Below the pieces are notes generated by a model that had not been told where the DNA came from, made no database searches, and saw only the letters and a program-made list of their open reading frames with translations. DNA of 64,000 nt from Bacteroidota bacterium (GTDB lineage Bacteria > Bacteroidota > Bacteroidia > Bacteroidales > Prolixibacteraceae): contig JAJRSD010000061.1 in NCBI GenBank assembly GCA_024278975.1, forward strand, positions 1-64,000, written 5' to 3'. This document shows positions 173-58,618 of the stretch, piece by piece. Positions within the stretch are counted from its first letter, which is position 1; each line of letters opens with the position of its first letter. A program made the position numbers and the translations under genes.

Positions 173-246
173 CGTAATCCCAATATTTTATGTAATTCTG
201 GGATCGTAATCCCAATATTTTATGTAAATTTGGGATTATAATCTCA
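173..246 (+). promoter_or_regulatory. repeat/operator array of ATPase A
   Basis: Two 32-bp near-identical direct copies lie at 173-204 and 205-236. Their junctions form inverted repeats: TGGGAT-cgta-ATCCCA at 199-214 and TGGGAT-tata-ATCTCA at 231-246, centred 32 bp apart. A TAAATTTG matching the Bacteroidota -7 box lies at 225-232 and overlaps the second palindrome, 17 bp before the ATG of the ATPase. Seen: the repeats and the overlap. Inferred: they are operators for a DNA-binding product, probably the ATPase itself. Confidence 0.6.
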
Positions 247-262
247 CTTTTTATAATTTGTT

Positions 263-1384
263 ATGATAAAAAGATTACTTGAAAAGATAATAGTAGATAA
301 GATTGGCAGTAAAAAAGCCATAATTATTTTGGGTGCACGGCAAACCGGAAAAACAACTTTAATAAAAAAAGTACTTTCGGAATATAGCGGAGAAACCATT
401 TTCCTGAATGCTGATAAACCTATCGTTCAGGAGCAACTTGGAAGCGCTTCAATAAATGAATTTAAACAACTTTTTGGTTCGGCTAAATTAATTTTTATTG
501 ATGAGGCACAGCGCATAAAAAATATCGGAATTGTGTTGAAATTAATTGTTGATGAACTGCCCAAAATTCAATTAGTAGTTACAGGTTCTTCGGCTTTTGA
601 ATTATCGAACAGTATAAACGAGCCTCTAACCGGCAGAAAATATGAGTACCGGCTTTTCCCTGTTTCGTGGAGAGAGATGGTAAAGTACATTAATCATTTT
701 GAAGCACTATCGCAATTGCAACAGCGGATAATTTATGGAATGTACCCCGATGTAATCACGAATTCAGGCAACGAAAAAGAGATACTTTTAAACCTTACTG
801 AAAGTTATCTTTATAAAGATATTATTGCTTTTCAACAAATAAGAAAGCCTGAGTTTGTTCAGAAACTTTTGCAAGCACTCGCCTTTCAAACGGGAAATGA
901 GGTGTCGTATAACGAGCTGTCGAATATGCTGCAAATAGACCGAAAAACAATCATTCATTATATCGATTTGTTAGAAAAAGCTTTTGTGATTTTAAGATTA
1001 CCATCATTCAGTCGGAATTTACGGAAAGAGCTTGTATCGAAAATTAAAATATATTTTTACGATACAGGAGTGAGAAATGCTTTAATAGGAGATTTTAGAC
1101 CATTTAATATGCGAACTGACAAAGGTGCTTTATGGGAGAATTTTTTTATTTCGGAGCGAAAAAAAGCAAATCATTATAATTTGAAATATGTAAATTCTTA
1201 TTTCTGGAGAACACACCAAAAACAAGAGATCGATTATATTGAAGAGGCAGATGGTTTTATAAATGCTTACGAAATAAAATGGAGTGATTCTGCAAAATAT
1301 AAAATTCCCAAAATATTTGTAGATACATACCCAAATTCAAATATTGAGTTAATTACATCGAATAATTTTTACCAATATTTATAA
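263..1384 (+). CDS. AAA ATPase with DUF4143 C-terminal domain (ATPase A)
   Basis: This 373-residue protein belongs to COG1373 (AAA_14 plus DUF4143). A Walker A motif GARQTGKTT lies at residues 24-32 and a Walker B LIFIDEAQR near residues 76-84. A winged-helix-like middle (around 215-250) is followed by a C-terminal domain with the pattern EIDYIEE...AYEIKW, which fits the D...ExK signature of the PD-(D/E)XK clan to which DUF4143 is assigned. The cellular role of the family is not established; NTP-driven DNA binding or cleavage is inference. It is a close paralogue of ATPase C at 31650, roughly half identical by eye along the whole length, yet the upstream repeats of the two genes are unrelated. 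The MazG-like gene follows after one base, so the two probably form one transcript. Confidence 0.85.
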   Translation: MIKRLLEKIIVDKIGSKKAIIILGARQTGKTTLIKKVLSEYSGETIFLNADKPIVQEQLGSASINEFKQLFGSAKLIFIDEAQRIKNIGIVLKLIVDELPKIQLVVTGSSAFELSNSINEPLTGRKYEYRLFPVSWREMVKYINHFEALSQLQQRIIYGMYPDVITNSGNEKEILLNLTESYLYKDIIAFQQIRKPEFVQKLLQALAFQTGNEVSYNELSNMLQIDRKTIIHYIDLLEKAFVILRLPSFSRNLRKELVSKIKIYFYDTGVRNALIGDFRPFNMRTDKGALWENFFISERKKANHYNLKYVNSYFWRTHQKQEIDYIEEADGFINAYEIKWSDSAKYKIPKIFVDTYPNSNIELITSNNFYQYL

Positions 1385-1385
1385 G

Positions 1386-1730
1386 ATGAACAGCGAGAAG
1401 ATTACTATAAACGAAGCCCAAAAACAAGTTGACAACTGGATTAAAAAGTATGGAGTACGATATTTCAGCGAGCTGACAAACATGGCTATTTTAACTGAAG
1501 AGGTGGGTGAGCTGGCAAGAATTATCTCCCGTAAATTTGGAGACCAGTCGTTTAAAAAATCAGACGAAAAATATGATCTCGGCGACGAAATGGCTGATAT
1601 ATTTTGGGTTTTAATTTGCATGGCAAACCAAACCGGAATTGACTTGAATGAGGCGTTTATTAAAAATATGGATAAAAAAACTCTTCGTGATAAAGAGAGG
1701 CATATTCAAAATAAGAAGCTAAAAGATTAA
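1386..1730 (+). CDS. MazG-like nucleotide pyrophosphohydrolase
   Basis: A 114-residue all-alpha NTP pyrophosphatase of the MazG/MazG-like superfamily, which hydrolyses (d)NTPs to the monophosphate and pyrophosphate. The metal-binding motif is visible as EEVGELA (about residues 38-44), followed by DEMADIFW (about 67-74), matching the ExxE...ExxD pattern. One single-domain unit of this length is typical of house-cleaning MazG-like enzymes rather than the two-domain MazG. The ATG lies one base after the stop of the ATPase, so the genes are very likely cotranscribed and perhaps translationally coupled. The stop codon overlaps by four bases the stop of the convergent response regulator. Substrate is unknown. 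Confidence 0.85.
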   Translation: MNSEKITINEAQKQVDNWIKKYGVRYFSELTNMAILTEEVGELARIISRKFGDQSFKKSDEKYDLGDEMADIFWVLICMANQTGIDLNEAFIKNMDKKTLRDKERHIQNKKLKD

Positions 1731-2464
1731 ATTTTAGGATGCATATTTTTCTCTTCCAATAAAAATCCACTACCATGAATATTTTTGATTTCGATGTTAG
1801 AATCGGCGGCAAGATATTTACGGAGTTTTGTAATAAATACATCCATGCTACGGGCAGTAAAATAACCATCTTCTCCCCAAATTTTACGCAGTGCTATGTC
1901 GCGTTGTAACAATTCGTTTTTATTCTGACAAAGTAATTTTAGCAAATCAGACTCTTTTGGCGACAATTTTTGTTTAACTCTCTCACGCAAAATATACCTC
2001 AGTTTCGAGTCGAAAAAATAAGTGCCGATTGTAAAAATAACCTCATCGTTTGCAGGTTGTGCAGATTGCCGTTTAATAATCGCCTCAATTTTACAGAGCA
2101 AAACTTCGGTGTCGAATGGTTTGGTAATATAATCATCGGCGCCAACATTGTAGCCTTTTAAAATGTCCTCTTTTAGCGTTTTAGCGGTGAGGAAAACCAT
2201 GGGTATATTCTTGTCTATTTTTCGAATTTCGGTGCCAATTGTAAATCCATCAACATTTGGCAGCATCACATCGAGAATACAAATCTGATAATTTCCATTC
2301 ACAAATTTATCAACTGCAAGTTTACCATCGTCAACCCAGGTAACTTTGTACTCGTTAATTTCGAGGTACGATTTTAAAACCGCACCGAAACTCAGGTCGT
2401 CTTCCACTAAAAAAATATGATTTTCGTTTCCCACTTTTTGATCTCTTATTCTTTCTTTACTCAC
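1727..2464 (-). CDS. OmpR/PhoB-family response regulator
   Basis: A 245-residue response regulator: an N-terminal receiver domain with acidic pocket EDD (21-23), phospho-acceptor Asp65 in ILDVMLP, Thr93 and Lys115 in DYITKPF, then a C-terminal winged-helix DNA-binding domain (about 145-240; KLSPKESDLLKLL and the SMDVFITKLRKYL recognition region). It lies 59 bp downstream of the sensor kinase on the same strand, so the pair forms a two-component system. Order and size resemble the RprX/RprY pair of Bacteroides, but that equivalence is inference. Target genes are not evident; the exported protein divergent from the kinase is the nearest candidate. Confidence 0.93.
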   Translation of the reverse strand: MSKERIRDQKVGNENHIFLVEDDLSFGAVLKSYLEINEYKVTWVDDGKLAVDKFVNGNYQICILDVMLPNVDGFTIGTEIRKIDKNIPMVFLTAKTLKEDILKGYNVGADDYITKPFDTEVLLCKIEAIIKRQSAQPANDEVIFTIGTYFFDSKLRYILRERVKQKLSPKESDLLKLLCQNKNELLQRDIALRKIWGEDGYFTARSMDVFITKLRKYLAADSNIEIKNIHGSGFLLEEKNMHPKI

Positions 2465-2507
2465 TACTATTTACTACCTATTCCAATTTTCCCTATCTAT
2501 TTCTTTG

Positions 2508-2521
2508 CGCCTCAGCGGTTA
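2508..2521 (-). repeat. copy of a short dispersed intergenic repeat
   Basis: The minus strand reads TAACCGCTGAGGCG, identical over 14 bases to 20287-20300, and both copies sit between cotranscribed genes. The copies diverge outside this core. It looks like a member of a small dispersed repeat family; function unknown. Confidence 0.5.
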
Positions 2522-2523
2522 AT

Positions 2524-4266
2524 TTATTCCCTCACAAAAGGTAAAAACACTTCAAATTTACTTCCTTTCCCGGGTTCGCTTTCCACCGAAATATTACCAC
2601 GGTTTGCTTCCAAAACTGCTTTCACATAACTCAACCCCAAACCAAACCCTTTTACATTATGAATGTTTCCGCTGGTTTGTCGATAAAACCGCTCGAAAAT
2701 TTTTCCTTGCACAGCTTTTGTCATTCCAATTCCTTTATCAGTAACCGAAATTAAAACTCCATTGGTTTGATTGATTGTTGACACACTAATTTCGGGTGAC
2801 TCGTCGGAATATTTTATAGCATTATCTAACAAATTATAAACTACATTTGTAAAGTGAATTTTGTCGGTGGTAATTATAGAATTTACCGCGCTGAGATTTG
2901 TTTCAATCTTTCCACCTCGTTTTTCAACCTGCAAATTAATCCCCTGAATTGCATCGTTAATCAACTCATGTACATCAATTGTTTCCCAGTTAAATTCAAA
3001 ATCTTTTTTATCCAAACGTGCAATTGTGAGAATATCTTCAACCTGCCTGTTCATCCGTGCGTTTTCTTTTTTTATCATCCCCGCAAAATAGCGGATTCTT
3101 TCGGGGTCGCTTACTACTTTTTCGTTGATAATTGAGTCGGTAGCCACCGAAATTGTTGCTATTGGAGTTTTAAATTCGTGGGTCATATTATTGATAAAAT
3201 CCGACTTCATTTCCGAAATCTTTTTTTGCCTGAGAATATAAAAAATGCTCAACGAAAAGGTGATCAAAATAAACAGCGAAAACAGGAATGAAGCCACTAA
3301 TAACCAGTTTAACGAACGATAAACAAAACTATCCCGATTGGGAAAGAACAGTGCCAGTTTTATATCTTTCTGAAAAATATCGTTGGGGTAAAGATTTATT
3401 TGAAAAGCAGTGTTGGCAACTTCTGCCGAGTCGTTAACTTCAATGGGGAAATCGATAATACCATTGCGAATTATCCCAAATTCAAAATCGATGGGAATAT
3501 TTTTATCGGTTAACTCTTGGGTTAAAATTTTTTGCAGCAACTCTTCGTCAACATCTTTTGCATCCCATTCGTGAATTTCTGTTACAACCTGATTTGCCAG
3601 ATTTTTTAGTTTTATACCTTTCATTTTTGCACGCCTCGAAATATTGGATTGAGCAAAATACAGCGTATCTAAATTCATTAAAACAGAGTCAATTTTTATC
3701 CTGCTAATTGTGTACAACGAATCTGCATCGGAAATAATCGTGTCGTTATTAATAATTATAATTTCGCTGCGACCTCTATTTTTGTCAATAATTACAGGAT
3801 TTGCTTGAACTGATTTGGTGGTAATATTATATTGGTTTGAACTTTTTACAGATTGCGAATCGCTGCTCGATTCAACCCTGATTTCAATTGTTGCATTGTT
3901 ATCATTCGATTTTATTTTGCGTATTATATTAACTTGTTGTGGTTTTTCGCCACCCTTAATTTGTCCGATAGAACTATTATTACCACTAATAACATGAACT
4001 TTCATTTCAGTGTCAAAATCCTCATCTGTATCCATATTAAACACCCAACGCACCGAATCGCTAAAAGCCATCTGGTTTACCACGCCAAAATTATGTATGT
4101 CTTCCAGCTTTCGAACCGTATTTGTTAGTGCCTCGTTTACACCTCTGGTAAAAAGTTCGTTTTTCACCTTCAACGCATTATTCATCCAAACCAATTGCAC
4201 GGTAATAATTCCCACAATAGAAATCGCCATTAACACAATTAATCCGGTAATAATCTTTTTGTTCAT
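2524..4266 (-). CDS. membrane sensor histidine kinase
   Basis: A 580-residue histidine kinase. One membrane helix at about 5-27 and a second at about 321-345 bracket a ~290-residue periplasmic sensor region. There is no obvious HAMP or PAS domain. The HisKA domain follows directly with phospho-acceptor His363 in MTHEFKTPIA, then the HATPase_c domain with N box NLLDNAIKY, G1 box DKGIGM and G2 box GFGLGLSYVK. It would autophosphorylate and pass phosphate to the response regulator encoded just downstream. The periplasmic region is rich in Ser, Asn, Ile and Asp and matches no family I recognise. It is divergent from the exported acidic protein at 4406. Confidence 0.93.
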   Translation of the reverse strand: MNKKIITGLIVLMAISIVGIITVQLVWMNNALKVKNELFTRGVNEALTNTVRKLEDIHNFGVVNQMAFSDSVRWVFNMDTDEDFDTEMKVHVISGNNSSIGQIKGGEKPQQVNIIRKIKSNDNNATIEIRVESSSDSQSVKSSNQYNITTKSVQANPVIIDKNRGRSEIIIINNDTIISDADSLYTISRIKIDSVLMNLDTLYFAQSNISRRAKMKGIKLKNLANQVVTEIHEWDAKDVDEELLQKILTQELTDKNIPIDFEFGIIRNGIIDFPIEVNDSAEVANTAFQINLYPNDIFQKDIKLALFFPNRDSFVYRSLNWLLVASFLFSLFILITFSLSIFYILRQKKISEMKSDFINNMTHEFKTPIATISVATDSIINEKVVSDPERIRYFAGMIKKENARMNRQVEDILTIARLDKKDFEFNWETIDVHELINDAIQGINLQVEKRGGKIETNLSAVNSIITTDKIHFTNVVYNLLDNAIKYSDESPEISVSTINQTNGVLISVTDKGIGMTKAVQGKIFERFYRQTSGNIHNVKGFGLGLSYVKAVLEANRGNISVESEPGKGSKFEVFLPFVRE

Positions 4267-4270
4267 GGTT

Positions 4271-4278
4271 CAAATATA
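4271..4278 (-). promoter_or_regulatory. -7 box of the sensor kinase promoter
   Basis: The minus strand reads TATATTTG, an exact match to the Bacteroidota -7 consensus TAnnTTTG, only four bases before the annotated ATG. The transcript would be nearly leaderless, or translation starts slightly downstream. Confidence 0.45.
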
Positions 4279-4365
4279 GATATTTAAACAGGTAGTTTTT
4301 ACACTTTAACTTTTCCTTAACAGTATTTAACCAGCTTTTAACAGAGTGATATACAAAGAGTAAGT

Positions 4366-4373
4366 TATATTTG
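4366..4373 (+). promoter_or_regulatory. -7 box upstream of the exported acidic protein
   Basis: TATATTTG matches the TAnnTTTG consensus, 32 bases before the ATG at 4406. A T-rich stretch near 4336-4340 is a weak candidate for the -33 element. The intergenic region is shared with the divergent kinase. Confidence 0.5.
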
Positions 4374-4405
4374 CACCAGAAATAATTCATTTAAAAATTA
4401 GAAAT

Positions 4406-5224
4406 ATGAAACGTATTTTATTGATTACCGGATTTTTAGGATTGACAATTTTATTTACTTCAGCAATCTCAATCTTAGAAACTCCGCAAGACCCGCCTCA
4501 TGGAAAAAAAACCACGAAGCATATTAAAATGGTAAAAATTGATGACGATGGTAAAAAAACCGAACTCGATACTATTATAGAAAATAACGATGTTTTTATT
4601 TGGAATGGCGATACAATTGGTGGCGAACACGGTATGAAATGGATCTCGGAAGGTGATATTGAAATGGATTTTGATGTTGAAGTTTTGGAAGGTACTGATG
4701 GAAAAGTTATTATTATGAAGTCGGGTAGCGGAGGCGAAGCCAATGTAATGGTTATTAGTGGTGACGAAGATAGCGACGATATGATTTTTGAAACTCAACA
4801 TACTCCAAAGGTGATGATGATGAAAATGCCCAATCAAGGGAATGTGATTGATTTAAGCGACCCGGGAATTATTTCGTACGAGAAAAAAGATTTAAAAGAC
4901 GGAAAAGAAAAAATTACTATTGTACGAAAAAAGTCAACCGAAAAAGATATGGAGATGCACAAAATGATTATGCATGGTGGCAGTGCACATCCGATGATGA
5001 TTCATTCGGGACATCCCGGAGAGACCAAAACCATAAAAGTAATTTCGGGTGATGATGGAAATGTCGAAATTATTGAAAATGGAAAAGTCAGGCATGTGAG
5101 AATGGACGGGAAAAATGTCAAAATAATTGAAGAGGATGGAAAGACAATTCGTATAGAAGAGATTAACGATGACAATGAGAAAACTATCAAAGTTAAAGTT
5201 GTTAAGGAGGAAATAATTAAATAG
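4406..5224 (+). CDS. exported acidic, Met/His-containing protein of unknown function
   Basis: A 272-residue protein with an N-terminal signal peptide (hydrophobic LLITGFLGLTILFTSAI, about residues 4-21). I do not recognise the mature part. It is very rich in Asp, Glu, Lys and Ile/Val, with repeated short patterns of the type KxIKVISGDDG and KVIIMKSGSGG, and a central Met/His-rich stretch (about residues 190-208, MHKMIMHGG... and HPMMIHSGH). The repeating strand-turn pattern suggests an extended beta structure, and the Met/His groups could bind metal; both are inference. It is divergent from the sensor kinase, and so is a plausible target or ligand partner of that two-component system. A terminator follows at 5239. 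Confidence 0.7.
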   Translation: MKRILLITGFLGLTILFTSAISILETPQDPPHGKKTTKHIKMVKIDDDGKKTELDTIIENNDVFIWNGDTIGGEHGMKWISEGDIEMDFDVEVLEGTDGKVIIMKSGSGGEANVMVISGDEDSDDMIFETQHTPKVMMMKMPNQGNVIDLSDPGIISYEKKDLKDGKEKITIVRKKSTEKDMEMHKMIMHGGSAHPMMIHSGHPGETKTIKVISGDDGNVEIIENGKVRHVRMDGKNVKIIEEDGKTIRIEEINDDNEKTIKVKVVKEEIIK

Positions 5225-29491: not shown

Positions 29492-29536
29492 TTATTGCCG
29501 TATATTGTAAATAATATTTTAAATTTGCGGCAATAA
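29492..29536 (+). promoter_or_regulatory. inverted-repeat operator and promoter of ATPase B
   Basis: TTATTGCCG (29492-29500) and CGGCAATAA (29528-29536) are perfect 9-bp inverted arms. The first contains a weak -33 element (ATTG, 29494-29497); the second begins immediately after a -7 box TAAATTTG (29520-29527). The ATG is at 29547. A protein bound at both arms would enclose the promoter. Confidence 0.6.
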
Positions 29537-29546: not shown

Positions 29547-30713
29547 ATGTATATCAAAAGAGTTATTGAAGACAAATTACTTTTGCTTTTAGAGCATTTC
29601 CCGGCTGTTGCTATACTTGGTCCCAGACAGGTTGGAAAGACAACTTTAGTTAAAGAAATAAGGAAACAACTGACAAAAGAGAGTATTTATCTCGATCTTG
29701 AGAACCCGGCTGATTTGGCAGTATTAAATCATCCGGTAGAATTTTTTAATTCAGTATCCGATAAAACTACCATCATAGATGAGATACAAAGAAAGCCTGA
29801 TCTTTTACCTGTTTTACGATCCATAATAGATAATAAAAGAGTAAACAGCAGACTAATATTACTCGGGTCTGCAAGTCATCAGTTGCTATTTTTAAGTAAC
29901 GAAACACTTGCCGGACGAATAGTTTATATGGAACTTACTCCTTTTGGACATACCGAGATTGAGCATCTTTCAGACTTTAGGGGACATTGGCTGAAAGGAG
30001 GTTTTCCCGATCCGTTCAACATGGCAAAGAATAACATACGCAAAGAGTGGACTAAATCTTTTTTATCTGCATATATTGAACGTGATTTGAGACTACTTGG
30101 GTTAAATACTTCACCTTCAACGCTCCACCGGCTTTTTCAAATGATTTCATCTTTGCATGGCGGAATATTAAATATTAGTAGTCTAGCCAAATCTTTGGGC
30201 GTTTCCTCTCCAACAGTAAATAATGCTATCTCCTATATCGAACGTTCGTTTATTATCAGGCTTTTACAACCCTGGTATTCAAACATTGGGAAAAGATTAA
30301 TAAAATCGTCTAAAATATATATTCGGGATTCTGGCATAGTAAATTATTTACTGGGAATATCTACTTACGAAGATTTACTCAGGCATCCTATGTTGGGGCA
30401 TCTTTGGGAAGGTTATGTGGTTGAGGATATAATTAATACTTTAACCGATGAATATCAATACTATTTTTACCGCACTGCAGATGGCACCGAATGCGACCTG
30501 CTGATTTTTAAAAAAAATGACTGTATTGCAGCCATTGATGCCAAATTCAGCCCAAATCCTAAAAGAACAAAATCAATGGCCATAACTTTACAGGATTTAA
30601 AGCCTAAAAAAGCTTTTTATGCAGTTCCTGATTGTAAAACACCGTATGCAATTGCAGATAACCAATTTGTCGCCACACCATGGCAAATTACTGATATTAT
30701 TCGTTCTATGTGA
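29547..30713 (+). CDS. AAA ATPase with DUF4143 domain (ATPase B)
   Basis: A 388-residue COG1373 protein. Walker A GPRQVGKTT lies at residues 25-33 and Walker B TTIIDEIQRKPD near 74-85. The arginine-rich segment SAYIERDLRLLG precedes a winged-helix-like part (ISSLAKSLGVSSPTVNNAISYIERS). The C-terminal DUF4143 domain ends with TECDLLIFKKN...AIDAKFS, fitting a D...(D/E)xK pattern of the PD-(D/E)XK clan. It belongs to a different branch from ATPases A and C. Its upstream arms flank the promoter, suggesting self-regulation. It lies between the UT-M23 operon and a T9SS cargo gene with no apparent functional tie to either. Biological role unknown. Confidence 0.85.
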   Translation: MYIKRVIEDKLLLLLEHFPAVAILGPRQVGKTTLVKEIRKQLTKESIYLDLENPADLAVLNHPVEFFNSVSDKTTIIDEIQRKPDLLPVLRSIIDNKRVNSRLILLGSASHQLLFLSNETLAGRIVYMELTPFGHTEIEHLSDFRGHWLKGGFPDPFNMAKNNIRKEWTKSFLSAYIERDLRLLGLNTSPSTLHRLFQMISSLHGGILNISSLAKSLGVSSPTVNNAISYIERSFIIRLLQPWYSNIGKRLIKSSKIYIRDSGIVNYLLGISTYEDLLRHPMLGHLWEGYVVEDIINTLTDEYQYYFYRTADGTECDLLIFKKNDCIAAIDAKFSPNPKRTKSMAITLQDLKPKKAFYAVPDCKTPYAIADNQFVATPWQITDIIRSM

Positions 30714-31584: not shown

Positions 31585-31637
31585 TAATGACCTATGGTTA
31601 TGACTATTAGTCATTACGATAATTTAATTTATCTTTG
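31585..31637 (+). promoter_or_regulatory. operator and promoter of ATPase C
   Basis: A perfect inverted repeat ATGACTA-t-TAGTCAT lies at 31600-31614, with further half-sites TAATGAC (31585-31591) and GTCATTA (31610-31616). A -7 box TATCTTTG lies at 31630-31637; the palindrome covers the -33 position (TTAG at 31607-31610, 19-bp spacer). Repression by a protein bound here would be direct. Confidence 0.6.
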
Positions 31638-42586: not shown

Positions 42587-42621
42587 AATGCCATTTGGAG
42601 AAAAACCAGATGGCATTTTTT
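42587..42621. terminator. terminator between DUF2147 and ATPase D
   Basis: 12-nt arms AATGCCATTTGG (42587-42598) and CCAGATGGCATT (42606-42617) with one G-U pair, followed by Ts on the plus strand and As before the first arm. It ends at the stop codon of ATPase D. Confidence 0.85.
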
Positions 42622-43726
42622 ATGGCTGCTGTTTTAGCCAAAGAGAAAAAAACCAGTCGGTAACATGAATACCTCGCAGATTTATTAATAAGCCTTTTTC
42701 AATTAATGCATTTATTGCGGTTCGTGCCGAACTTGTAGAATCTAATTTATATTTCGATAAAAATTGTATCGAGTAAGGTTTTTCGACATGGAACTCTTTT
42801 GCAACAGCCTTTAATATCTGATATTGCAGACGTGTTAGCAGCTCGCGATAATTAAAATATACTACTTCATTTTCCTTCAAAATTTCGTTTAATATTTTCT
42901 TCGCCAGATCCGACGTTATCTTTTTTTCTTGTTCAGAAAAAAGTTTATGACAAAGATATTGTATGTTGTAAGTAATTCCATTGCCAATTTCATAAATATA
43001 TTTTGCAGTTTCATCATCGATAAAAAAGTTGTGAGATTTAAAATTTTGTATGATAAATTTCGTGTATTCTGATTGCTCAATTCGTTCGAGATACATGGTT
43101 TGCGAACTATTGTAAAATGGTCTTGAATACTCGTTAAACATAGAAATTAACAGATGTGTCTGACTCCCGCTGAATATAAAACTGGCATTGTTATCTTTCT
43201 GAATTTCAGACCGAAGTAGTGCTTCCACATTTTTTTCAGGGTATTTTAAAATTTGTTGAAATTCATCGAATGCAATCACTATTTTTTTATCTGAATTTCT
43301 TATGTATTCAAATAACAAATTAACAGATTTTTCTGCCTCAGAATTATTACTGATCGTGAATTCCAACCCGGGAACACCAGTTTCAGGATTAAAAGAAAAC
43401 TTTGGTTGCAGAGCTGCAAAAAAACTTGTTATTTTTCTGATAACCTTATCTGAAAAAGGCTCAAGTTTTTCGATAATATTGTTTGACAGAACCTGAATAA
43501 AATCCTTTAACCGAAGTGTTGGATACAAATCGACATAAACAAATATTATACTACTGGTTAATTGAAATTCGACATGTTTTAACAATGATGTTTTCCCAAT
43601 TCGCCGCTCCGAAATAAGTGTAAGGTTTCTTGAGTTTTCAATAACATTCACTATTTTTTCTGCTTCAGTTTTTCTGTCGCAAAAATATTTTGGGCTTTCA
43701 TATCCCGAAACTAAAAATGGGTTCAT
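42620..43726 (-). CDS. archaeal-type AAA ATPase (ATPase D)
   Basis: A 368-residue ATPase of the COG1672/PF01637 type. A P-loop ERRIGKTSLL lies at residues 40-49 and a Walker B KKIVIAFDEFQQI near 148-160, with the Sensor motif SFIFSGSQ near 184. A C-terminal winged helix (about 290-360, VEKPYSIQFLSKYKLDSTSSARTAINALIEKGLLI) follows; I see no nuclease motif. It is related to the DUF4143/DUF234 ATPases but is a different branch. Direct and inverted GCGCAA/GCGTAA repeats occupy the region before it. Role unknown; NTP-driven remodelling or DNA binding is inference. Confidence 0.83.
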   Translation of the reverse strand: MNPFLVSGYESPKYFCDRKTEAEKIVNVIENSRNLTLISERRIGKTSLLKHVEFQLTSSIIFVYVDLYPTLRLKDFIQVLSNNIIEKLEPFSDKVIRKITSFFAALQPKFSFNPETGVPGLEFTISNNSEAEKSVNLLFEYIRNSDKKIVIAFDEFQQILKYPEKNVEALLRSEIQKDNNASFIFSGSQTHLLISMFNEYSRPFYNSSQTMYLERIEQSEYTKFIIQNFKSHNFFIDDETAKYIYEIGNGITYNIQYLCHKLFSEQEKKITSDLAKKILNEILKENEVVYFNYRELLTRLQYQILKAVAKEFHVEKPYSIQFLSKYKLDSTSSARTAINALIEKGLLINLRGIHVTDWFFSLWLKQQP

Positions 43727-43729: not shown

Positions 43730-43857
43730 ATTGCGCTTTTTACGTAACGCAATTTACGCAATTATTATTACAACTCAAAACAAACATAAAGCGATATATC
43801 TAAAAGTATATCTGGCATTTACAAATGTTGTTTTTTGCGCAACGTTTTTTGCGCAAA
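43730..43857 (-). promoter_or_regulatory. repeat array and promoter of ATPase D
   Basis: Read on the minus strand, two direct ATTGCGTAA/ATTGCGTTA half-sites (plus coordinates 43747-43763) and an inverted GCGCAAT (43730-43736) lie in the leader, downstream of a -7 box TATGTTTG (43781-43788). On the other side, two perfect 13-base GTTTTTTGCGCAA copies sit at 43830-43842 and 43844-43856. The GCGCAA core is shared by both groups. Binding by the ATPase's winged helix is inference. Confidence 0.5.
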
Positions 43858-52306: not shown

Positions 52307-53734
52307 TTAAACCAATTTTTTAAACAGCCAATCAATTGTAATACTGTTATCAACCAGCCCGGTACTGTGTTTATTTTGCTTTACTCCAAATGTCGAAACA
52401 AGAGTAACAAATAACTGCTTTCGGGTTTTCGAATATTCTCTAAAACCTGCAATTTTATGCCGCAGTTTTTTTGCATACTCAGCATCAATCTCAAATTCCG
52501 ATTCATAAAATTTCATCTCACAAATATTAATCGAGTTATCGTTTCTGTCAATTAATAAATCAATCTGAAAACCCTCGTTTTGCTGAGTTCCCCTTTTTAT
52601 AAAACTCGATTCGGTTGTTAGTACTCCGCTAATGCCAAGTGCATGTTTTATCTGTTTTACATGCTTCATACACACCGACTCGAACGCAAACCCGCTCCAG
52701 CTTTTCCATTGCTGATGGTTGTAAATTTGTGCAAACAACCTGTTTTTTCCCCGCTCGATAAACCGAATATAAAACAACGAATATTCATCGGTCAGTCTGT
52801 AAAGTGTCTCTTTCTTCTGCTTTCCAAAAGGTTGATATTTTGATATAAATCCCGATGTTATTAACTCATTTAAATACCGTGTCAAGCTTCCTCCATCCGA
52901 AATCTTCAATAGTTTCACAAGTTCGTTTCGCGTCAGTCCAATTCCTTTATTTGCCAGTACCCTAATAATTTTTTCATGGTTTTGTGCATTTTCAAACAGG
53001 ACTGCATATAAATTCTGAAACTCATTTTTTAACAACCCATTTTTCTGAAAACAGATTTTATCGATATTTTGTGCAGCACTCAATCCCGGTTTTACCTCCT
53101 TTAAATAGTGCGGTATTCCGCCCATAGTCAGGTATATTTGCACAATCTGATAGTGGTTAAGTTTTACACTCTTTGTTTTAAAAAACATTTCGGTCTCCTG
53201 TAAATTAAAAGGTTCTAACTGTATTAATCGTGTAATCCGGTTATGCAACCCACCTTTATTATTTACCACTTTGTCAATCATCCACGAGGCTGCCGACCCA
53301 CAAATAACAACAACAATATTTTGTCTGCTTGCCCGGTTATTCCAAAAATGTGCAAGTGCTTCCAAAAAGCCCGAACGACGTGTTGACAGCCACGGTAATT
53401 CGTCGAAAAAAATAACTTTTTTCTTTTTCGATTTTAACGAATCCAGATATCGTGCTAATTGATTAAATGCTTTTATCCAATTATTCGGAACTGCCAACTC
53501 TATTTCCGATTTTGAAAACTCAGCCAGTTGAATTGAAAAATTATACAACTGCTCCTCTTTCGATGCATCTTTTATTCCGGTTATCTCGAAACAGATTGCA
53601 TCTTTATAAACTTCTCTTATTAAAAATGTTTTACCAACTCTTCGTCTTCCAATTACTGCTAACATCTCCGATTCATCCGACGAAAGCATCTCTTTCATTA
53701 TCTCTATTTCCTCTAATCTACCTACTAAATCCAT
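52307..53734 (-). CDS. archaeal-type AAA ATPase with DUF234 domain (ATPase E)
   Basis: A 475-residue ATPase (PF01637 plus DUF234). I take the ATG at 53734 (MDLVGRLEEIEIMKEML), since the ATG at 53770 would put the N-terminus inside the operator. P-loop GRRRVGKTF is at residues 29-37; Walker B KVIFFDELPWL is near 107-117. A winged helix (NELVKLLKISDGGSLTRYLNELI) follows, then a C-terminal PD-(D/E)XK-like domain with GFQIDLLIDRND...ICEMKF. Its promoter is flanked by a five-copy palindromic motif array. Restriction-like, regulatory or other roles are all open. Confidence 0.85.
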   Translation of the reverse strand: MDLVGRLEEIEIMKEMLSSDESEMLAVIGRRRVGKTFLIREVYKDAICFEITGIKDASKEEQLYNFSIQLAEFSKSEIELAVPNNWIKAFNQLARYLDSLKSKKKKVIFFDELPWLSTRRSGFLEALAHFWNNRASRQNIVVVICGSAASWMIDKVVNNKGGLHNRITRLIQLEPFNLQETEMFFKTKSVKLNHYQIVQIYLTMGGIPHYLKEVKPGLSAAQNIDKICFQKNGLLKNEFQNLYAVLFENAQNHEKIIRVLANKGIGLTRNELVKLLKISDGGSLTRYLNELITSGFISKYQPFGKQKKETLYRLTDEYSLFYIRFIERGKNRLFAQIYNHQQWKSWSGFAFESVCMKHVKQIKHALGISGVLTTESSFIKRGTQQNEGFQIDLLIDRNDNSINICEMKFYESEFEIDAEYAKKLRHKIAGFREYSKTRKQLFVTLVSTFGVKQNKHSTGLVDNSITIDWLFKKLV

Positions 53735-53754
53735 AATACATTTATATTTATTCG

Positions 53755-53871
53755 TGGCGGAATGCATCAAATATAATAAGATTCCGCCATTTATACAAAT
53801 TTATTACTAGCGGAATCTTGCTTTTGTGATAAGATTCCGCCAGCAATAATAAAATATTGCTGGCGGAATCT
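53755..53871 (-). promoter_or_regulatory. five-site operator array within the ATPase E promoter
   Basis: The motif TGGCGGAATCTT or its complement occurs at 53755-53763 (truncated), 53778-53789, 53809-53819 (one change) and as a perfect 17-bp-armed hairpin at 53832-53848/53855-53871. The promoter is -33 TTTG (plus 53796-53799) and -7 TATATTTG (53768-53775), spaced 20 bp. One site sits inside the spacer and one between the -7 box and the ATG, so occupancy should block transcription. Confidence 0.75.
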
Positions 53872-54043: not shown

Positions 54044-55096
54044 TTATCTCTCTTTATACTGTTCGTTGTAGTATTTCTGGTAATCTCCCGAAGTTACATT
54101 ATCTAACCACTCTTCGTTTTCGAGATACCAGTCAATGGTTTTTTCAATTCCCTCTTCAAACTGGAGAGATGGTTCCCAGCCAAGTTCATTTTTAATTTTT
54201 GTGGCATCAATTGCATAACGTAAATCATGACCGGCGCGGTCTTTTACGTAAGTAATTAGTTTTTCCGATTTGCCTTTTTCGCGCCCCAGTTTTTCGTCCA
54301 TCTTTTGGCACATCACCTTTATTAGTGCAATGTTTGTCCACTCGTTAAAACCGCCAATATTGTAGGTTTCGCCAATTTTACCATCGTGGTAAATTGTATC
54401 TATCGCACGGGCATGGTCAGCCACCCACAACCAATCTCTAATATTTTCACCTTTGCCGTAAACAGGCAGTGGTTTATTATTTTTAATATTATGGATAAAA
54501 AGAGGTATCAACTTTTCGGGAAACTGAAACGACCCATAATTATTCGAGCAGTTAGAAATTACAGTTGGTAAACCAAAAGTATCTAAATATGCGCGTACAA
54601 AATGGTCGGAGCTGGCTTTCGATGCCGAGTATGGACTGTGTGGATCGTAACCGGTCTCCTCGGTAAACATCCCTTCGTCGCCCAGCGAACCGTAAACTTC
54701 GTCGGTAGAAATATGGTAGAACTTTTTACCATCGAAATTATCTTTCCAAACATGTTTCGCAGAATTCAGTAAATTAACCGTACCAATTACATTGGTGAAA
54801 ACAAATTCAGTGGGGTTCGAAATTGACCTGTCAACATGCGACTCGGCAGCGAGATGAATTACTCCATCAAATTGTCGCTCTTCAAACAGTTCCTGAATAA
54901 ATTTCTCGTCAACAATATCACCTTTTACAAATTCGTAATTTGGCATATTCTCAATATCTTTCAAATTATTCAGGTTACCTGCATAAGTTAACTTGTCGAG
55001 GTTTACAATTTTATAATCGGGATATTTATTTACAAATAACCGAATAACATGCGACCCTATAAATCCTGCACCACCTGTAATAAGTATTGTTTTCAT
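54044..55096 (-). CDS. rfbB: dTDP-glucose 4,6-dehydratase
   Basis: A 350-residue short-chain dehydrogenase of the RmlB/RfbB type, the second step of dTDP-rhamnose and other deoxysugar synthesis. I take the ATG at 55096 (MKTILITGGAGFIGSHV). NAD motif GGAGFIGSH, catalytic Thr/Asp-Glu region STDEVYGSLG and YSASK (Tyr-x3-Lys) are visible, with the SNNYGSFQFPEKLIPLFI substrate segment. The other rml genes are not in the window. It is separated from ATPase E by the repeat at 53888. Confidence 0.95.
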   Translation of the reverse strand: MKTILITGGAGFIGSHVIRLFVNKYPDYKIVNLDKLTYAGNLNNLKDIENMPNYEFVKGDIVDEKFIQELFEERQFDGVIHLAAESHVDRSISNPTEFVFTNVIGTVNLLNSAKHVWKDNFDGKKFYHISTDEVYGSLGDEGMFTEETGYDPHSPYSASKASSDHFVRAYLDTFGLPTVISNCSNNYGSFQFPEKLIPLFIHNIKNNKPLPVYGKGENIRDWLWVADHARAIDTIYHDGKIGETYNIGGFNEWTNIALIKVMCQKMDEKLGREKGKSEKLITYVKDRAGHDLRYAIDATKIKNELGWEPSLQFEEGIEKTIDWYLENEEWLDNVTSGDYQKYYNEQYKER

Positions 55097-55382
55097 AATA
55101 TTTATAATTTTATTCAAAACAAAAATACAAAGTTACTTTTTATCTTCAATATTCTTTTTCATTTCTGCTCTTTTCGCAACGCTTTTTCTTATAGGCAGAT
55201 ACACTCTGAACAATACTCATAGAAACCAATTGAATGATTTTTTTCAATCAAACAAATCAAATATTTACAATTTGCGAAACTGTAAATTGTAGGCAATGGC
55301 CTAAAGAGGCTTGGCTTAGTCCTCAACTTTATGAAATGAGCCGGCACTACTCAATGCCAGTAAGGTTTTCAAAAAATCGGGC
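55097..55382. other. intergenic stretch without a gene
   Basis: Between rfbB and tRNA-Asn. The part from 55302 to 55370 resembles, in a loose way, 16966-17015, both containing GGC[T/C]GGCACT and a preceding pyrimidine/purine pattern; this may be a degenerate dispersed repeat. Otherwise AT-rich and featureless. Confidence 0.3.
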
Positions 55383-55411
55383 ATAAAAAAAGAGGTCGAA
55401 AATGACCTCTT
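55383..55411 (-). terminator. terminator of tRNA-Asn
   Basis: On the minus strand AAGAGGTC (55411-55404) pairs with GACCTCTT (55397-55390), followed by seven Ts. It starts 9 bases after the tRNA CCA end. Confidence 0.88.
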
Positions 55412-55419
55412 GTCCTGTC

Positions 55420-55496
55420 TGGCTCCCCAGGTAGGACTTGAACCTACGACCTACGGATTAACAGTCCGCCGCTCTAACCAACTGAGCTACTAGGGA
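55420..55496 (-). tRNA. tRNA-Asn (anticodon GTT)
   Basis: The full cloverleaf is visible on the minus strand: acceptor TCCCTAG pairing with CTGGGGA, D arm AGCTCAGTTGG, anticodon loop CTGTTAA giving GTT, T arm with GTTCAAGTC, discriminator G and encoded CCA. A terminator follows. Confidence 0.97.
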
Positions 55497-55697
55497 ATTT
55501 ATAACCGTTTAAGAACGATTGCTTTTTCAAAAGCGATGCAAAAATAGTTTCTTTTCTCAAAAGAAAAAATATTTTTCAATAAAATGTTCTACAAAAATTT
55601 AAGATACAAGTGCGACATTATTATAAAAGCTATTTATAGTATAGTTTTCACAAATAATAATGTTAGTTACTTTCCATATATTTTATTGATACTGTGA

Positions 55698-56717
55698 TTA
55701 AGTTGCCGACTCAAACTGCTTAAGAAACCGTACATCGTTTTCGAAGAAATGGCGTATATCTTTAATTCCATAACGCAACATTGTAATTCGCTCAATCCCC
55801 ATTCCAAAAGCAAATCCAGTGTATTTTCTACTATCAATATTACAACCTTCCAACACATTTGGATCAACCATTCCGCAACCTAAAATTTCTAACCAACCTG
55901 TGTATTTACAAACATTACAACCTTTCCCACCACATATGGTACAACTCACATCCATTTCGGCACTTGGCTCAGTGAATGGGAAATACGATGGTCGTAATCT
56001 AATTTTGGTGCCTTCTCCAAAAAGCTCTTTTGCAAATTGCAATAGAGTTTGTTTGAGGTCGGCAAACGATACATTTTCGTCAACATACAACCCTTCTATC
56101 TGGTGAAAAATGCAATGCGAACGTGCAGAAATTGCTTCGTTACGAAAAACGCGTCCCGGAAAAATAGAACGAATAGGAGGTTCGGAATGTTCCATTACCC
56201 GAATTTGTACACTCGAAGTGTGTGTACGCAACAAAACATCGGGGTTTTTTTCAATAAAAAAAGTATCCTGCATATCGCGGGCAGGATGTTCAGGCGGAAA
56301 ATTTAAAGCCGAAAAAACATGCCAGTCGTCCTCAATTTCAGGTCCTTCGGAAACTGTAAATCCCAAACGAGCAAAAATTGCAATAATCTCATTTTTCACC
56401 AGCGAAAGCGGATGACGAGTACCAAGTTTTATTGGTTCGCCGGGCATAGTTAAATCATTGCCAGAATCACCGCTGTCTGCAACATCAAACGACTCTTTTA
56501 ACAAGTTAATCTTATTGAGTGCAAGGTTCTTTAGGATATTTATAGCTTGACCTACTTCCTTTTTCTGTTCAGCCGGAACGTATTTAAAATCGGCAAATAA
56601 TTGGTTAATACTTCCCTTTTTACTGATATATTTTATACGGAGTTCGTCAACCTCTTCTACGCTCGATGCAACTACCTTCTCTATTTCTGCTTGTAATGTT
56701 TTGATTTTATCTAACAT
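55698..56717 (-). CDS. pheS: phenylalanyl-tRNA synthetase alpha subunit
   Basis: A 339-residue PheS. The coiled-coil N-terminus (1-85) is followed by the class II catalytic core with motif 1 region (GTRHPLSLVKNEIIAIFARLGF), motif 2 (FRNEAISARSHCIFHQIEGLYV) and motif 3 (GFAFGMGIERITMLRYGIKDIRHFF). A short Cys-rich hairpin (SCTICGGKGCNVCKYTGWLEILGCGM) is normal in bacterial PheS. It makes Phe-tRNA with PheT, which is not beside it. It lies opposite the tRNA-Arg promoter. Confidence 0.96.
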   Translation of the reverse strand: MLDKIKTLQAEIEKVVASSVEEVDELRIKYISKKGSINQLFADFKYVPAEQKKEVGQAINILKNLALNKINLLKESFDVADSGDSGNDLTMPGEPIKLGTRHPLSLVKNEIIAIFARLGFTVSEGPEIEDDWHVFSALNFPPEHPARDMQDTFFIEKNPDVLLRTHTSSVQIRVMEHSEPPIRSIFPGRVFRNEAISARSHCIFHQIEGLYVDENVSFADLKQTLLQFAKELFGEGTKIRLRPSYFPFTEPSAEMDVSCTICGGKGCNVCKYTGWLEILGCGMVDPNVLEGCNIDSRKYTGFAFGMGIERITMLRYGIKDIRHFFENDVRFLKQFESAT

Positions 56718-56873
56718 CGTACCCTTTTTTTATTCGGTCGCAAAGATAATCATTCAAATGAAAACTTAATGAAATAATTTTTACGGTGAATTATGGCTCT
56801 GTTATAATTTTTAATCTGTTAATCTGTGGCAAATTCTTTTAACAACAATATTTAAATGATATTTTTAGAATGA

Positions 56874-56905
56874 TTTGTCAAGACAATGGTTTTTACATAT
56901 TTTTG
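56874..56905 (+). promoter_or_regulatory. promoter of the tRNA-Arg transcript
   Basis: -33 TTTG at 56874-56877, 20-bp spacer, -7 TATTTTTG at 56898-56905. It would drive the 5' tRNA copy, the GIY-YIG gene and the intact tRNA-Arg as one RNA. Confidence 0.65.
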
Positions 56906-56913
56906 CACATTCT

Positions 56914-56980
56914 TAAAAAGAATGGTCCCATAGTTCAACGGATACCTGCCTGCCGGCAGGCAGGTAATAGTAGTCTCCGT
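56914..56980 (+). pseudogene. disrupted 5' copy of tRNA-Arg
   Basis: 56914-56944 is identical for 31 bases to 57218-57248, the start of the intact tRNA-Arg, covering the acceptor strand and part of the D arm. A palindrome (56943-56966) breaks it in the D arm. AATAGTAGT then resumes at 56966-56974, matching the intact tRNA, before it diverges. It cannot form a tRNA. Confidence 0.8.
56943..56966. repeat. 24-bp perfect palindrome
   Basis: Left half TACCTGCCTGCC and right half GGCAGGCAGGTA with no loop, highly G+C-rich in an AT-rich surrounding. It occurs only here in the window and lies in the broken tRNA copy, 28 bp before the GIY-YIG start. Confidence 0.85.
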
Positions 56981-56994
56981 TGTGAGTTTTATTT

Positions 56995-57237
56995 ATGAGT
57001 TATTTTGTTTATGTCATAAAAAGTGAAGTAGATGGGAGGATTTATGTTGGTTTTTCTGAAAACGTTCAGAAAAGATTAAGGGAACATAATTCAGGAAAAA
57101 CTAAATCGACAAAAGGTTACCGCCTCTGGAAGTTGATTTTTACAAAAGAGTGTGAAACACGAATTCAGGCAAGAGAGCTTGAGAAATACTATAAAAGTGG
57201 TATTGGAAAAGAAATACTAAAAAGAATGGTCCCATAG
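56995..57237 (+). CDS. small GIY-YIG nuclease
   Basis: An 80-residue single-domain GIY-YIG endonuclease. YFVYVIKSE and RIYVGFSEN form the GIY-YIG strands (YVY and YVG), followed by the Arg of QKRLREHNSG and the catalytic Glu of ETRIQARELEKYY. It has no DNA-binding domain. Its reading frame runs into the intact tRNA-Arg: the last residues MVP and the TAG stop are the first bases of the tRNA. Either the stop was taken from the tRNA on insertion, or the gene evolved beside it. Small GIY-YIG genes are often mobile or homing-like; that is inference here. Confidence 0.85.
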   Translation: MSYFVYVIKSEVDGRIYVGFSENVQKRLREHNSGKTKSTKGYRLWKLIFTKECETRIQARELEKYYKSGIGKEILKRMVP

Positions 57238-57302
57238 TTCAACGGATAGAATAGTAGTTTCCTAAACTATAGATCCAAGTTCGATTCTTGGTGGGATCAC
57301 CA
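57228..57302 (+). tRNA. tRNA-Arg (anticodon CCT)
   Basis: Acceptor GGTCCCA pairs with TGGGATC (one G-U), D arm GTTC...GAAT, anticodon loop TTCCTAA giving CCT for AGG codons, T arm CCAAG-TTCGATT-CTTGG, discriminator A and encoded CCA at 57300-57302. Its first ten bases also encode the end of the GIY-YIG protein. A terminator follows. Confidence 0.93.
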
Positions 57303-57312
57303 AGAAAGCTAA

Positions 57313-57347
57313 AAAGCTGGTGCATGGTAATTTGTACCGGCTTTTTT
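57313..57347 (+). terminator. terminator after tRNA-Arg
   Basis: AAAGCTGGT (57313-57321) pairs with ACCGGCTTT (57336-57344), one G-U, followed by Ts. It ends the tRNA-Arg transcript 13 bp before the stop of ATPase F on the other strand. Confidence 0.82.
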
Positions 57348-57360
57348 ATTGTAGTAATCA

Positions 57361-58563
57361 TTAAACGAATGAATAAAAAGGAATCACATTAACAACTCTC
57401 CCATTCCTCACAAATCTGTCAGTTTGATTTATTGTCACTATTGTGCCCTCATCTAACTCAAAAAAATCCATTGCTTCAAAAACACCATTTAATTCATCTT
57501 CAAGATTGTCTTGTTTTAACTCATCGCAAACCTGAATAACTTTTTCAACCCTGTTTTTATTCATAACAACAAAATCGCAATTAAACTTTTCTGAATGATA
57601 GTACAATTCTGAAATCTGTTTCCGGAGGTGCAGAAAAGCCATGTTTTCCAAAAGTTGTTCGGTTGAATCTTCAAATAAAGCTGAATTTGCTGTTACTAAT
57701 CCGGTATCAACAGCATAAACTTTCCTCGGGTTTATCATCTGTTTGCTAACTGAATAACTAAATTTAGGAACATAAAAAAACAGATAAGCCGACTCTAAAA
57801 ACGATAAATAATCTATTACTGTACTTGTAGTTTTTATACCCAGAATATTTTTAATTTGATTTCCGGTAATTAGTTTTCCAACGTTAGAAAGAAGATGAAG
57901 TGCTAAACGTTTAAACGAACGTAAATCACGAATACCAGTACGTACGGCAATTCCCCGAACTAAAATATCATCGAAAAATTGATTTAGATATTCGTCGGAA
58001 TTTGAGGATAAATACGCAGGAAAACCACCTTTTTTTAAATATGTAATTGTTGACTCTTCACTCTTTTCAATTTCATTAAATGCACAAAATTCATTGTATG
58101 AAAATGGAAATAACTCTTTTATATTGTTTAGTCCGGCAAATTCATGATCAACTTCATTATTCAATATTGAGGAATCGGAACCGGTTATAACTATTTGAAA
58201 CCCTTCTGAAAGTTTTTGACTTACGTAACTATTCCAATCAGTCAATTTCTGAATTTCATCAAAAAAAAGTATTCTAACTCCTTTCTCTTCAATTATTTCG
58301 TCGAGTTTAAAGAGATCGTTTTTATCCAAATTATAAAACCTCGGATGTTCAAAATTAATATACAAAGCATTCTGAAATTTCTCTTTATATAACTGAAACA
58401 GCAATGTACTTTTTCCGCTACTTTGTATCCCTGCAATTATCAATAACCGTAAATTATCAACTAATATTTGCGATCGAAGTTTGCGAGTTAATCCATATTT
58501 TCTATTATTAAACGTATTTTGTTGAATATTAATAATATTTAATATATCTGATTTTAAAATCAT
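57361..58563 (-). CDS. AAA ATPase with DUF4143 domain (ATPase F)
   Basis: A 400-residue COG1373 protein of a third branch. The P-loop is AGIQSSGKST (44-53) and Walker B RILFFDEIQKL near 93-103. DLRSFKRLALHLLSNVGKLITGNQIKNILGI is winged-helix-like. The C-terminal DUF4143 ends FNCDFVVMNKNRVEKVIQVCDEL, where the Asp is kept but the second acidic/lysine pair reads QVC, so a nuclease role is doubtful in this branch. Upstream lie AT-rich repeats and the inverted ~110-bp repeat shared with ATPase E. Function unknown. Confidence 0.83.
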   Translation of the reverse strand: MILKSDILNIINIQQNTFNNRKYGLTRKLRSQILVDNLRLLIIAGIQSSGKSTLLFQLYKEKFQNALYINFEHPRFYNLDKNDLFKLDEIIEEKGVRILFFDEIQKLTDWNSYVSQKLSEGFQIVITGSDSSILNNEVDHEFAGLNNIKELFPFSYNEFCAFNEIEKSEESTITYLKKGGFPAYLSSNSDEYLNQFFDDILVRGIAVRTGIRDLRSFKRLALHLLSNVGKLITGNQIKNILGIKTTSTVIDYLSFLESAYLFFYVPKFSYSVSKQMINPRKVYAVDTGLVTANSALFEDSTEQLLENMAFLHLRKQISELYYHSEKFNCDFVVMNKNRVEKVIQVCDELKQDNLEDELNGVFEAMDFFELDEGTIVTINQTDRFVRNGRVVNVIPFYSFV

Positions 58564-58579
58564 TACCTTTCATTTCTTA

Positions 58580-58618
58580 CAAAGATACATTTTTGTTTAT
58601 TATTAATGTATATTATTA
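58580..58618 (-). promoter_or_regulatory. -7 box and AT-rich repeats of ATPase F
   Basis: The minus strand has TATCTTTG at 58587-58580, a good -7 box 16 bp before the ATG. Upstream, TTATTATTA (58597-58605) and TATTATTA (58611-58618) are direct repeats. They are weak in information content, so this is the least certain of the six arrays. Confidence 0.4.

What the first reader, a model, noticed from the sequence alone, without database searches (positions are those of the whole stretch)
173..58618. Six P-loop ATPases, most with a private palindrome/repeat set at its promoter
Loci A (263), B (29547), C (31650), D (42620), E (52307) and F (57361) encode ATPases of the COG1373/COG1672 type. A, B, C and E end in a PD-(D/E)XK-like pattern, F in a degenerate one, and D has none I can see. 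Upstream motifs are locus-specific: TGGGAT/ATCCCA (A), TTATTGCCG/CGGCAATAA (B), ATGACTA/TAGTCAT (C), TTTGCGCAA-like (D), TGGCGGAATCTT (E), TTATTATTA (F, weak). In A, B, C and E they overlap or flank the -33/-7 boxes. This is what a family of self-regulated, sequence-specific DNA-binding elements would look like. I know of no described function for this arrangement.
Basis: partly seen in the sequence, partly recalled or inferred. Interest (0 to 1): 0.82.

Follow-up and report, generated by a model that had tools for sequence, protein, structure and literature searches.

The report
Self-reading ATPase genes with private operators
Many genes of a very common, uncharacterised ATPase-nuclease family carry in front of them a private set of evenly spaced DNA repeats, and the protein's DNA-reading residues change in step with those repeats, which suggests that each copy recognises its own address.

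Summary
The window's genome has about 45 such ATPases; 26 of 45 promoters carry a direct or inverted repeat scoring >=12, against 9 of 150 control promoters. The repeats are private in sequence (20 of 22 units hit no other family promoter), but their spacing follows protein clade: mostly 32/33 or 22/23 bp in DUF4143 clades, 14/28 bp in D's relatives, 51-55 bp in E's. In locus A's clade, residue 228 of the winged-helix recognition helix covaries with half-site base -6 (strongest of 5134 residue-base tests) and residue 318, in a hairpin of the nuclease domain, with spacer base -13. In 38 registrable members of a 102-member held-out set the rules gave 23/24 and 15/17; independent pairs on a tree agree. 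So the protein most likely reads its own array. Autoregulation, probably repression, is the best-supported function; a defence role is plausible but untested. A, B, C and F match the PADLOC candidate PDC-S01, E PDC-S27. My paper searches found no description of these arrays. Repeats at B and F do not exceed chance; C's is supported by relatives.

The parts
172..238 (+). A: array, two 32-bp units (172-203, 204-235) and an outer half-site TTGGGATTA at 230-238; the -7 box TAAATTTG at 225-232 lies inside
   Evidence: the only exact matches of the pattern in the 4.65-Mb genome are at 175 and 207; with up to 3 mismatches there are 32 matches against 23 for the reversed-pattern control
263..1384 (+). 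A: ATPase (AAA_14) + winged helix (recognition helix residues 227-239) + PD-(D/E)XK-like domain; PADLOC PDC-S01
29492..29536 (+). B: imperfect palindrome TTATTGCCG...CGGCAATAA; not above chance
29547..30713 (+). B: AAA_14 + DUF4143 ATPase (PDC-S01)
31597..31617 (+). C: GTTATGACTA T TAGTCATTAC; not above chance alone, GTCATTA kept in relatives with the same recognition helix
31650..32768 (+). C: AAA_14 + DUF4143 ATPase (PDC-S01)
42620..43726 (-). D: ATPase_2 followed by an HTH-like C-terminus, no nuclease seen
43830..43856 (-). D: TTGCGCAAAAAAC repeated at 14 bp; D's relatives also show 14/28-bp spacing
52307..53770 (-). E: ATPase_2 + HTH-like + PD-(D/E)XK-like protein (PDC-S27); relatives align from about residue 13, so the true start is probably the ATG at 53734
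53776..53871 (-). E: palindrome AGATTCCGCCAGCAATA/TATTGCTGGCGGAATCT (53832-53871) with a degenerate copy 53 bp on
57361..58563 (-). F: AAA_14 + weak DUF4143 ATPase (PDC-S01)
58597..58628 (-). F: AT-rich TAATAATA repeats; not above control promoters

Best explanation
Each locus is one gene plus its own operator array. The ATPase binds the array through its winged helix: in A's clade residue 228 of the recognition helix reads half-site base -6, residue 226 base -5, and residue 318, in a hairpin next to the nuclease motif D324, reads base -13 of the spacer between sites. In A's clade each unit is a palindrome, so a dimer per unit is likely; units recur every 32 bp (about three helical turns), so neighbouring dimers would sit on one face of the DNA and could join through the ATPase. 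The array covers or adjoins the promoter, so the protein controls its own transcription, probably by repression. Because nearly every copy has its own key, many copies can coexist with little cross-regulation. Shown by computation: arrays, clade-specific spacing, privacy, covariation, conservation of ATPase and nuclease residues. Inferred: binding itself, dimer and same-face assembly, repression, any defence role.
For: Arrays far above controls. Spacing tracks protein phylogeny: 12 label changes on 59 leaves labelled 22, 23, 32 or 33, against mean 28.3 and minimum 21 in 1000 shuffles. K228-G(-6) z 16.9, top of 5134 tests; K to G 34/35, N to T 8/9, E/Q/D to C 12/14. Held-out, register masked at the tested bases: 23/24, 15/17 and 31/31 for residues 228, 318 and 226 at score >=8 (38 of 102 members); K228-G p 2e-7, K/R318-C p 9e-9. 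Independent pairs on a tree of 112 training and held-out members: K228~G 7.8 of 9, K/R318~C 10.7 of 14, D226~G 7.2 of 10 in the same direction (means of 200 pairings), 0.0 opposed. Close orthologues keep motif plus gene while flanks differ. No further array unit within 4 kb in 41 of 45 loci. Nearest folds: archaeal AAA+ ATPases 2fna/2qen, then Cdc6/Orc1 bound to origin DNA, clamp loaders, RuvB.
Against: No binding or expression data. The E/Q/D228-to-C rule was not confirmed in the held-out set (1 of 4 at score >=6, none available at >=8). With a looser register the residue-228 rule falls to 37/49 (score >=4, 72 members). Only 38 of 102 held-out members could be registered at >=8. On the tree, N228~T, E/Q/D228~C and H318~A do not reach 0.05, and the first two have a few opposed pairs (means 0.1 and 0.2). 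21 of 49 arrays with a -7 box do not overlap the -33/-7 region (19 upstream, 2 downstream), which also fits activation. 28 to 45% of promoters in the five family sets have no repeat above threshold. Other high-scoring residue-base pairs have no ready explanation (263 with -16, z 10.0; 148 with -2, z 8.6). Two same-genome pairs share a motif, L084/L085 and L104/L114, and a test for avoidance of equal recognition helices within a genome was inconclusive (2 observed, one of them a double count, 2.76 expected).
Confidence: 0.8

Rival explanations
1. The array is the nuclease's own cutting or copying site: the cassette is a selfish or homing-like element that acts on its array.
For: Nuclease residues kept in >=98% of 229; the covarying residue 318 sits six residues from D324; shared DNA between some related copies is limited to array plus gene; relatives on plasmids, 494 of 72,556 records, and in 18 of 50,697 phage records.
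Against: 41 of 45 loci have no further array unit within 4 kb; of the 4 that do, L009 (low-complexity) and L194 have one just behind the gene, with about 1.5 chance hits expected in all. Defined ends or target duplications were not looked for beyond that. D's family has arrays but no nuclease that I can see.
Confidence: 0.12
2. Another host regulator, not the encoded protein, binds the arrays.
For: No direct binding data exist.
Against: Base identity follows residues of the encoded protein, in held-out data too; spacing follows protein clade; 7 of 16 A-clade members from records named as other phyla reach the same motif score >=9, though MAG binning errors cannot be excluded.
Confidence: 0.04
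3. The genes are relics of iteron-type replication initiators: AAA+ plus winged helix binding 22-33-bp repeats as an origin.
For: Iteron-like geometry (recalled); fold similarity to Orc1/Cdc6.
Against: About 45 copies in one genome; the ten neighbours of the window's copies that I checked are not replication genes by their Pfam matches; conserved nuclease.
Confidence: 0.04
4. Defence switch, compatible with the best explanation: the ATPase-nuclease is parked on its private array and is released or over-made on phage attack, when its nuclease acts on other DNA.
For: PADLOC models PDC-S01 and PDC-S27, discussed as unvalidated defence candidates in PMC12988326 (passages); conserved nuclease; own-promoter repression through repeats is known for a defence island (RptR, PMC12255303, abstract and passages).
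Against: No functional test; none of the ten neighbours checked is a known defence gene by its Pfam match.
Confidence: 0.35

Closest known systems
PDC-S01 and PDC-S27 (PADLOC candidate defence genes)
   Same: A, B, C, F match PDC-S01 models and E a PDC-S27 model; PMC12988326 (passages) describes both as ATPase fused to PD-(D/E)XK
   Different: No operator array, spacing rule or recognition code is mentioned in the passages seen; D matches no PADLOC model
RptR, repressor of a defence island (PMC12255303; abstract and passages)
   Same: Represses its own promoter through three direct repeats
   Different: A homodimeric repressor with a 6-bp palindromic site described as highly conserved; here the site diversifies and the protein is an ATPase, mostly with a nuclease
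Archaeal AAA+ ATPases 2fna (SSO1545) and 2qen
   Same: Best Foldseek matches to A, E 7e-9 and 8e-8
   Different: TM-score about 0.5; nothing about promoter arrays was tested there
arCOG03166, ATPase fused to HTH and RecB nuclease (PMC4158269, passages)
   Same: Same kinds of domains; noted there as 'likely involved in defense (or some plasmid gene)'
   Different: Arrays not mentioned in the passages seen; membership not tested by sequence
Iteron plasmid initiators and phage repressor/operator immunity (recalled)
   Same: Self-bound repeats with many mutually blind specificities
   Different: No replicon or prophage was identified here

Membership tests
PDC-S01 (AAA_14 + DUF4143) | Match to the PADLOC models | tested here: met
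   A 1.5e-159, B 9.6e-83, C 1.4e-162, F 2.3e-87
PDC-S01 (AAA_14 + DUF4143) | Anti-phage activity | not testable with these tools
PDC-S27 | Match to the PADLOC model | tested here: met
   E 7.5e-199; D none
Auto-regulator with its own operator | Specific repeated sites at its own promoter | tested here: met
   for A, D, E and many relatives; C through relatives; not for B and F
Auto-regulator with its own operator | Site specificity covaries with DNA-reading residues | tested here: met
   A clade only; the E/Q/D-to-C rule was not confirmed in held-out members
Auto-regulator with its own operator | Binding changes transcription | not testable with these tools
   Overlap with the -33/-7 region in 28 of 49 arrays
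PD-(D/E)XK nuclease | Conserved acidic and lysine motif | tested here: met
   for A's clade and E's family; D's alignment shows none; B and F not tested separately
Transposon with end repeats | Copies of the repeat at both ends | tested here: not met
   4 of 45 loci have any extra unit within 4 kb (two of these just behind the gene), about 1.5 chance hits expected

The most novel reading that the evidence does not exclude
A diversifying self-address system: AAA+ ATPases, most with a nuclease, read a private promoter array by a two-point code (winged helix plus nuclease-domain hairpin), the array acting as a template that fixes a same-face oligomer at a clade-specific pitch of 14, 22/23, 32/33 or about 53 bp, so that dozens of copies stay separate in one cell and the nuclease is held at its own promoter until released.
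Probability: 0.3. Interest if true: 0.92.

Novelty: new variant of a known kind. Interest (0 to 1): 0.82.

Why it matters
PMC12988326 counts PDC-S01 as the fourth most common defence across prokaryotes and says PDCs remain unvalidated (passages). The arrays give this family a testable molecular handle: a predicted binding site for many of its genes, readable from sequence, and a partial residue-to-base code. A nuclease-domain residue that acts as a second sequence reader would be unusual. The private keys raise the question why one genome keeps dozens of copies with separate addresses.

Tried and rejected
Chance from AT-rich promoters: rejected by dinucleotide shuffles and by 150 and 224 control promoters. 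Transposon ends: not supported. A regulon beyond the own promoter for A: exact matches only at its own promoter, near-matches close to the control count; not tested for other loci genome-wide. Avoidance of equal specificity within a genome: inconclusive. A simple palindrome scan sometimes registered on the spacer instead of the site, so an EM profile replaced it. Rows dropped before counts: three of 48 hits as not family or incomplete; four further weak or split AAA_14 hits were not taken up; 144 deduplicated members cut to 134 and 126; 116 cut to 111; 53 of 127 A-clade members below the register score; 11 of 113 members removed from the held-out set as too close to training, too distant, duplicate or too short upstream. 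The 134 rows include a few that are not AAA_14-DUF4143, such as E, an E-like protein and a RarA-like one. The 35 viral-contig loci were fetched but not analysed. Paper searches gave nothing on these arrays in what I saw; one search was swamped by unrelated papers and one search found none. Only held open-licence papers were searched, and of the four papers opened (PMC4158269, PMC12988326, PMC13356809, PMC12255303) I saw passages, no whole text.
Full report
What is there. The six loci encode P-loop ATPases. A, B, C and F match AAA_14 and DUF4143; D and E match ATPase_2. PADLOC models name A, B, C and F PDC-S01 and E PDC-S27; D matches none. The window's genome (4.65 Mb, 115 contigs) has 52 AAA_14 matches, of which I kept 45 as family members for promoter tests. 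A search for DUF4143 in 20 relatives plus the own genome found 1-47 matches per genome, 47 in the own genome and 29 in one of 2.6 Mb.

Are the repeats real? In the last 130 bp before the start codon, 26 of 45 family promoters have a direct or inverted repeat scoring >=12 (+1 match, -2 mismatch), against 9 of 150 control promoters from the same loci and 5 of 450 shuffles; at >=14 it is 19 of 45, 2 of 150 and 0 of 450. In wider sets the >=12 counts are 69/126, 66/111, 70/102, 19/28 and 23/32, against 17/224 and 9/150 controls. Of the window's six, A, D and E stand out alone; B, C and F do not. C gains support from relatives: of 229 A-clade members, the 7 with GTCATTA or its complement in the last 90 bp all carry N-K-x-T-x-Q-K-Y in the recognition helix (members with that helix but without the motif were not counted, and at least one, L327, exists).

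A clade-specific pitch. The sequences differ but the spacing is shared. Of 134 rows from the own genome and 20 relatives, 67 reach score 12; the best period was 32 or 33 in 39, 22 or 23 in 13, and 64, 66 or 69 in five; ten fell elsewhere. In 111 further A-like members, 48 of the 50 arrays were at 32, 33 or 64. In 102 held-out A-like members the 56 arrays with direct score >=12 were all at 32, 33, 64 or 99. In 29 relatives of a long 33-bp-type protein, 19 of the 20 arrays were at 32, 33, 65 or 66 and one at 97. D's relatives recur at 14 or 28 bp: the 13 of 19 that reach score 10 all have that period. E's family has palindromes, and in the 7 of 32 with direct score >=12 the period is 51-55 bp. 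On a protein tree the labels 22, 23, 32, 33 need 12 changes over 59 leaves; 1000 shuffles gave a mean of 28.3 and a minimum of 21. Pitch therefore follows the protein clade.

Private keys. Of 22 own-genome units with direct score >=12, 20 hit no other family promoter at up to 20% mismatch; the 11 cross hits come from two short AT-rich units, with 6.6 expected by shuffling. A's unit occurs exactly only at 175 and 207 in the genome; with up to three mismatches there are 32 places against 23 for the reversed pattern. Privacy is not absolute: two pairs of close copies in one genome (L084/L085, L104/L114) share a motif, and a test of avoidance within genomes was inconclusive.

Close orthologues keep array plus gene. 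A and L083/L074 share TAATCCCAA/TTGGGATTA; C and L072 share GTCATTA; L015 and L058 share GGTGAAT. In six pairs blastn similarity starts 66-162 bp upstream of the start and ends within about 55 bp of the stop codon, with no further hit in the upstream flank (L084/L085, L010/L121, L104/L114, L011/L114, L034/L108, L016/L069; L069 is cut short at its 3' end, and L084/L085 share some pieces further downstream). Other pairs share longer stretches: L126/L127, L130/L067, L012/L092, L033/L079 and, in part, L060/L075; L099/L105 share only a short piece.

The code. An EM profile registered 74 of 127 A-clade promoters at score >=9. Of 5134 residue-base tests the strongest is residue 228 with half-site base -6 (z 16.9, 40 permutations, not corrected for phylogeny); the next are residue 318 with base -13 (z 10.3), residue 263 with base -16 (z 10.0) and residue 148 with base -2 (z 8.6), the last two not pursued. 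Residue 228 is in the recognition helix (227-239) of the predicted winged helix; residue 318 lies in a hairpin between strands 311-317 and 322-329 beside D324. K228 goes with G in 34 of 35, N with T in 8 of 9, E/Q/D with C in 12 of 14; K318 goes with C in 19 of 20, H with A in 9 of 9; D226 with G at -5 in 62 of 62.

Held-out test. Rules were written down and tested on 102 new members, each <90% identical to any training protein (median best identity 60%), with the profile masked at the tested bases. At score >=8 (38 members): 23/24, 15/17 and 31/31 for residues 228, 318 and 226; at >=10 (25 members): 18/18, 13/15, 21/21; at >=6 (54 members): 30/35, 17/19, 38/40; at >=4 (72 members): 37/49, 21/23, 46/53. 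At >=8, K228-G: 17/17 against 4/21 others, p 2e-7; N228-T: 5/6 against 3/32, p 6e-4; K/R318-C: 15/17 against 0/21, p 9e-9. The E/Q/D-to-C rule was not confirmed (1 of 4 at >=6). On a tree of 112 training and held-out members, independent pairs gave median p 0.008 (K228~G), 0.001 (K/R318~C) and 0.016 (D226~G) with none opposed; N228~T (0.06), E/Q/D228~C (0.06) and H318~A (1) did not reach 0.05.

How it may work. Walker and nuclease residues are kept in nearly all of 229 A-clade proteins, so both activities are probably needed. Nearest solved folds are archaeal AAA+ ATPases 2fna and 2qen, then DNA-bound Orc1/Cdc6 and clamp loaders. In A the -7 box lies within the array; overall the best array pair overlaps the -33/-7 region in 28 of 49 cases with a recognisable box, lies upstream in 19 and downstream in 2. 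I therefore favour autoregulation, more likely repression, by a DNA-bound oligomer; the sign is open. D's family has arrays without a visible nuclease, so the array belongs to the ATPase-winged-helix part rather than to cutting. Ten neighbouring genes checked include a MazG-type enzyme, a response regulator, a TPR protein, two secreted proteins, a kinase/pyrophosphorylase, a radical SAM protein, ribosomal protein S16, a sugar dehydratase and an amidohydrolase.

What is known. PMC12988326 (passages) calls PDC-S01 the fourth most common defence across prokaryotes, says both S01 and S27 join ATPase and PD-(D/E)XK domains, and that PDCs remain unvalidated. PMC4158269 (passages) lists a similar archaeal protein as likely defence or plasmid gene. 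RptR represses its own promoter through three direct repeats (PMC12255303, abstract and passages). Searches for the family names found no report of the arrays in what I saw, within the held library.

Noticed in passing
window 1386-1730: A MazG-type pyrophosphohydrolase gene starts at 1386, one base behind A's stop codon (ends 1384); DNA similarity to the A-like locus L083 runs through it, so A may have a partner gene.
   Followed up: partly
G000:C36:130015-130425 and C21:34974-35324: Family matches with in-frame stops sit in the same genome, suggesting decay and turnover of copies.
   Followed up: no
L034, minus strand, promoter of a 621-nt ORF: A control promoter with an inverted repeat scoring 25; the gene was not identified.
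   Followed up: no
L009 (G000:C67:85950): AACCTGAAACTTT-type low-complexity repeats upstream at period 28 also occur downstream of the gene; probably an unrelated intergenic repeat, not an operator array.
   Followed up: partly
L071 and L055 (relatives of B): Long palindromes with the motif CCTTGAAATACTAATAT, spaced 54 bp in L071, so B's clade may use a different site geometry.
   Followed up: no
L482, Bacteroides uniformis plasmid: An A-like gene on a plasmid typed as mobilizable has its own repeat upstream, 32 bp apart by eye.
   Followed up: partly
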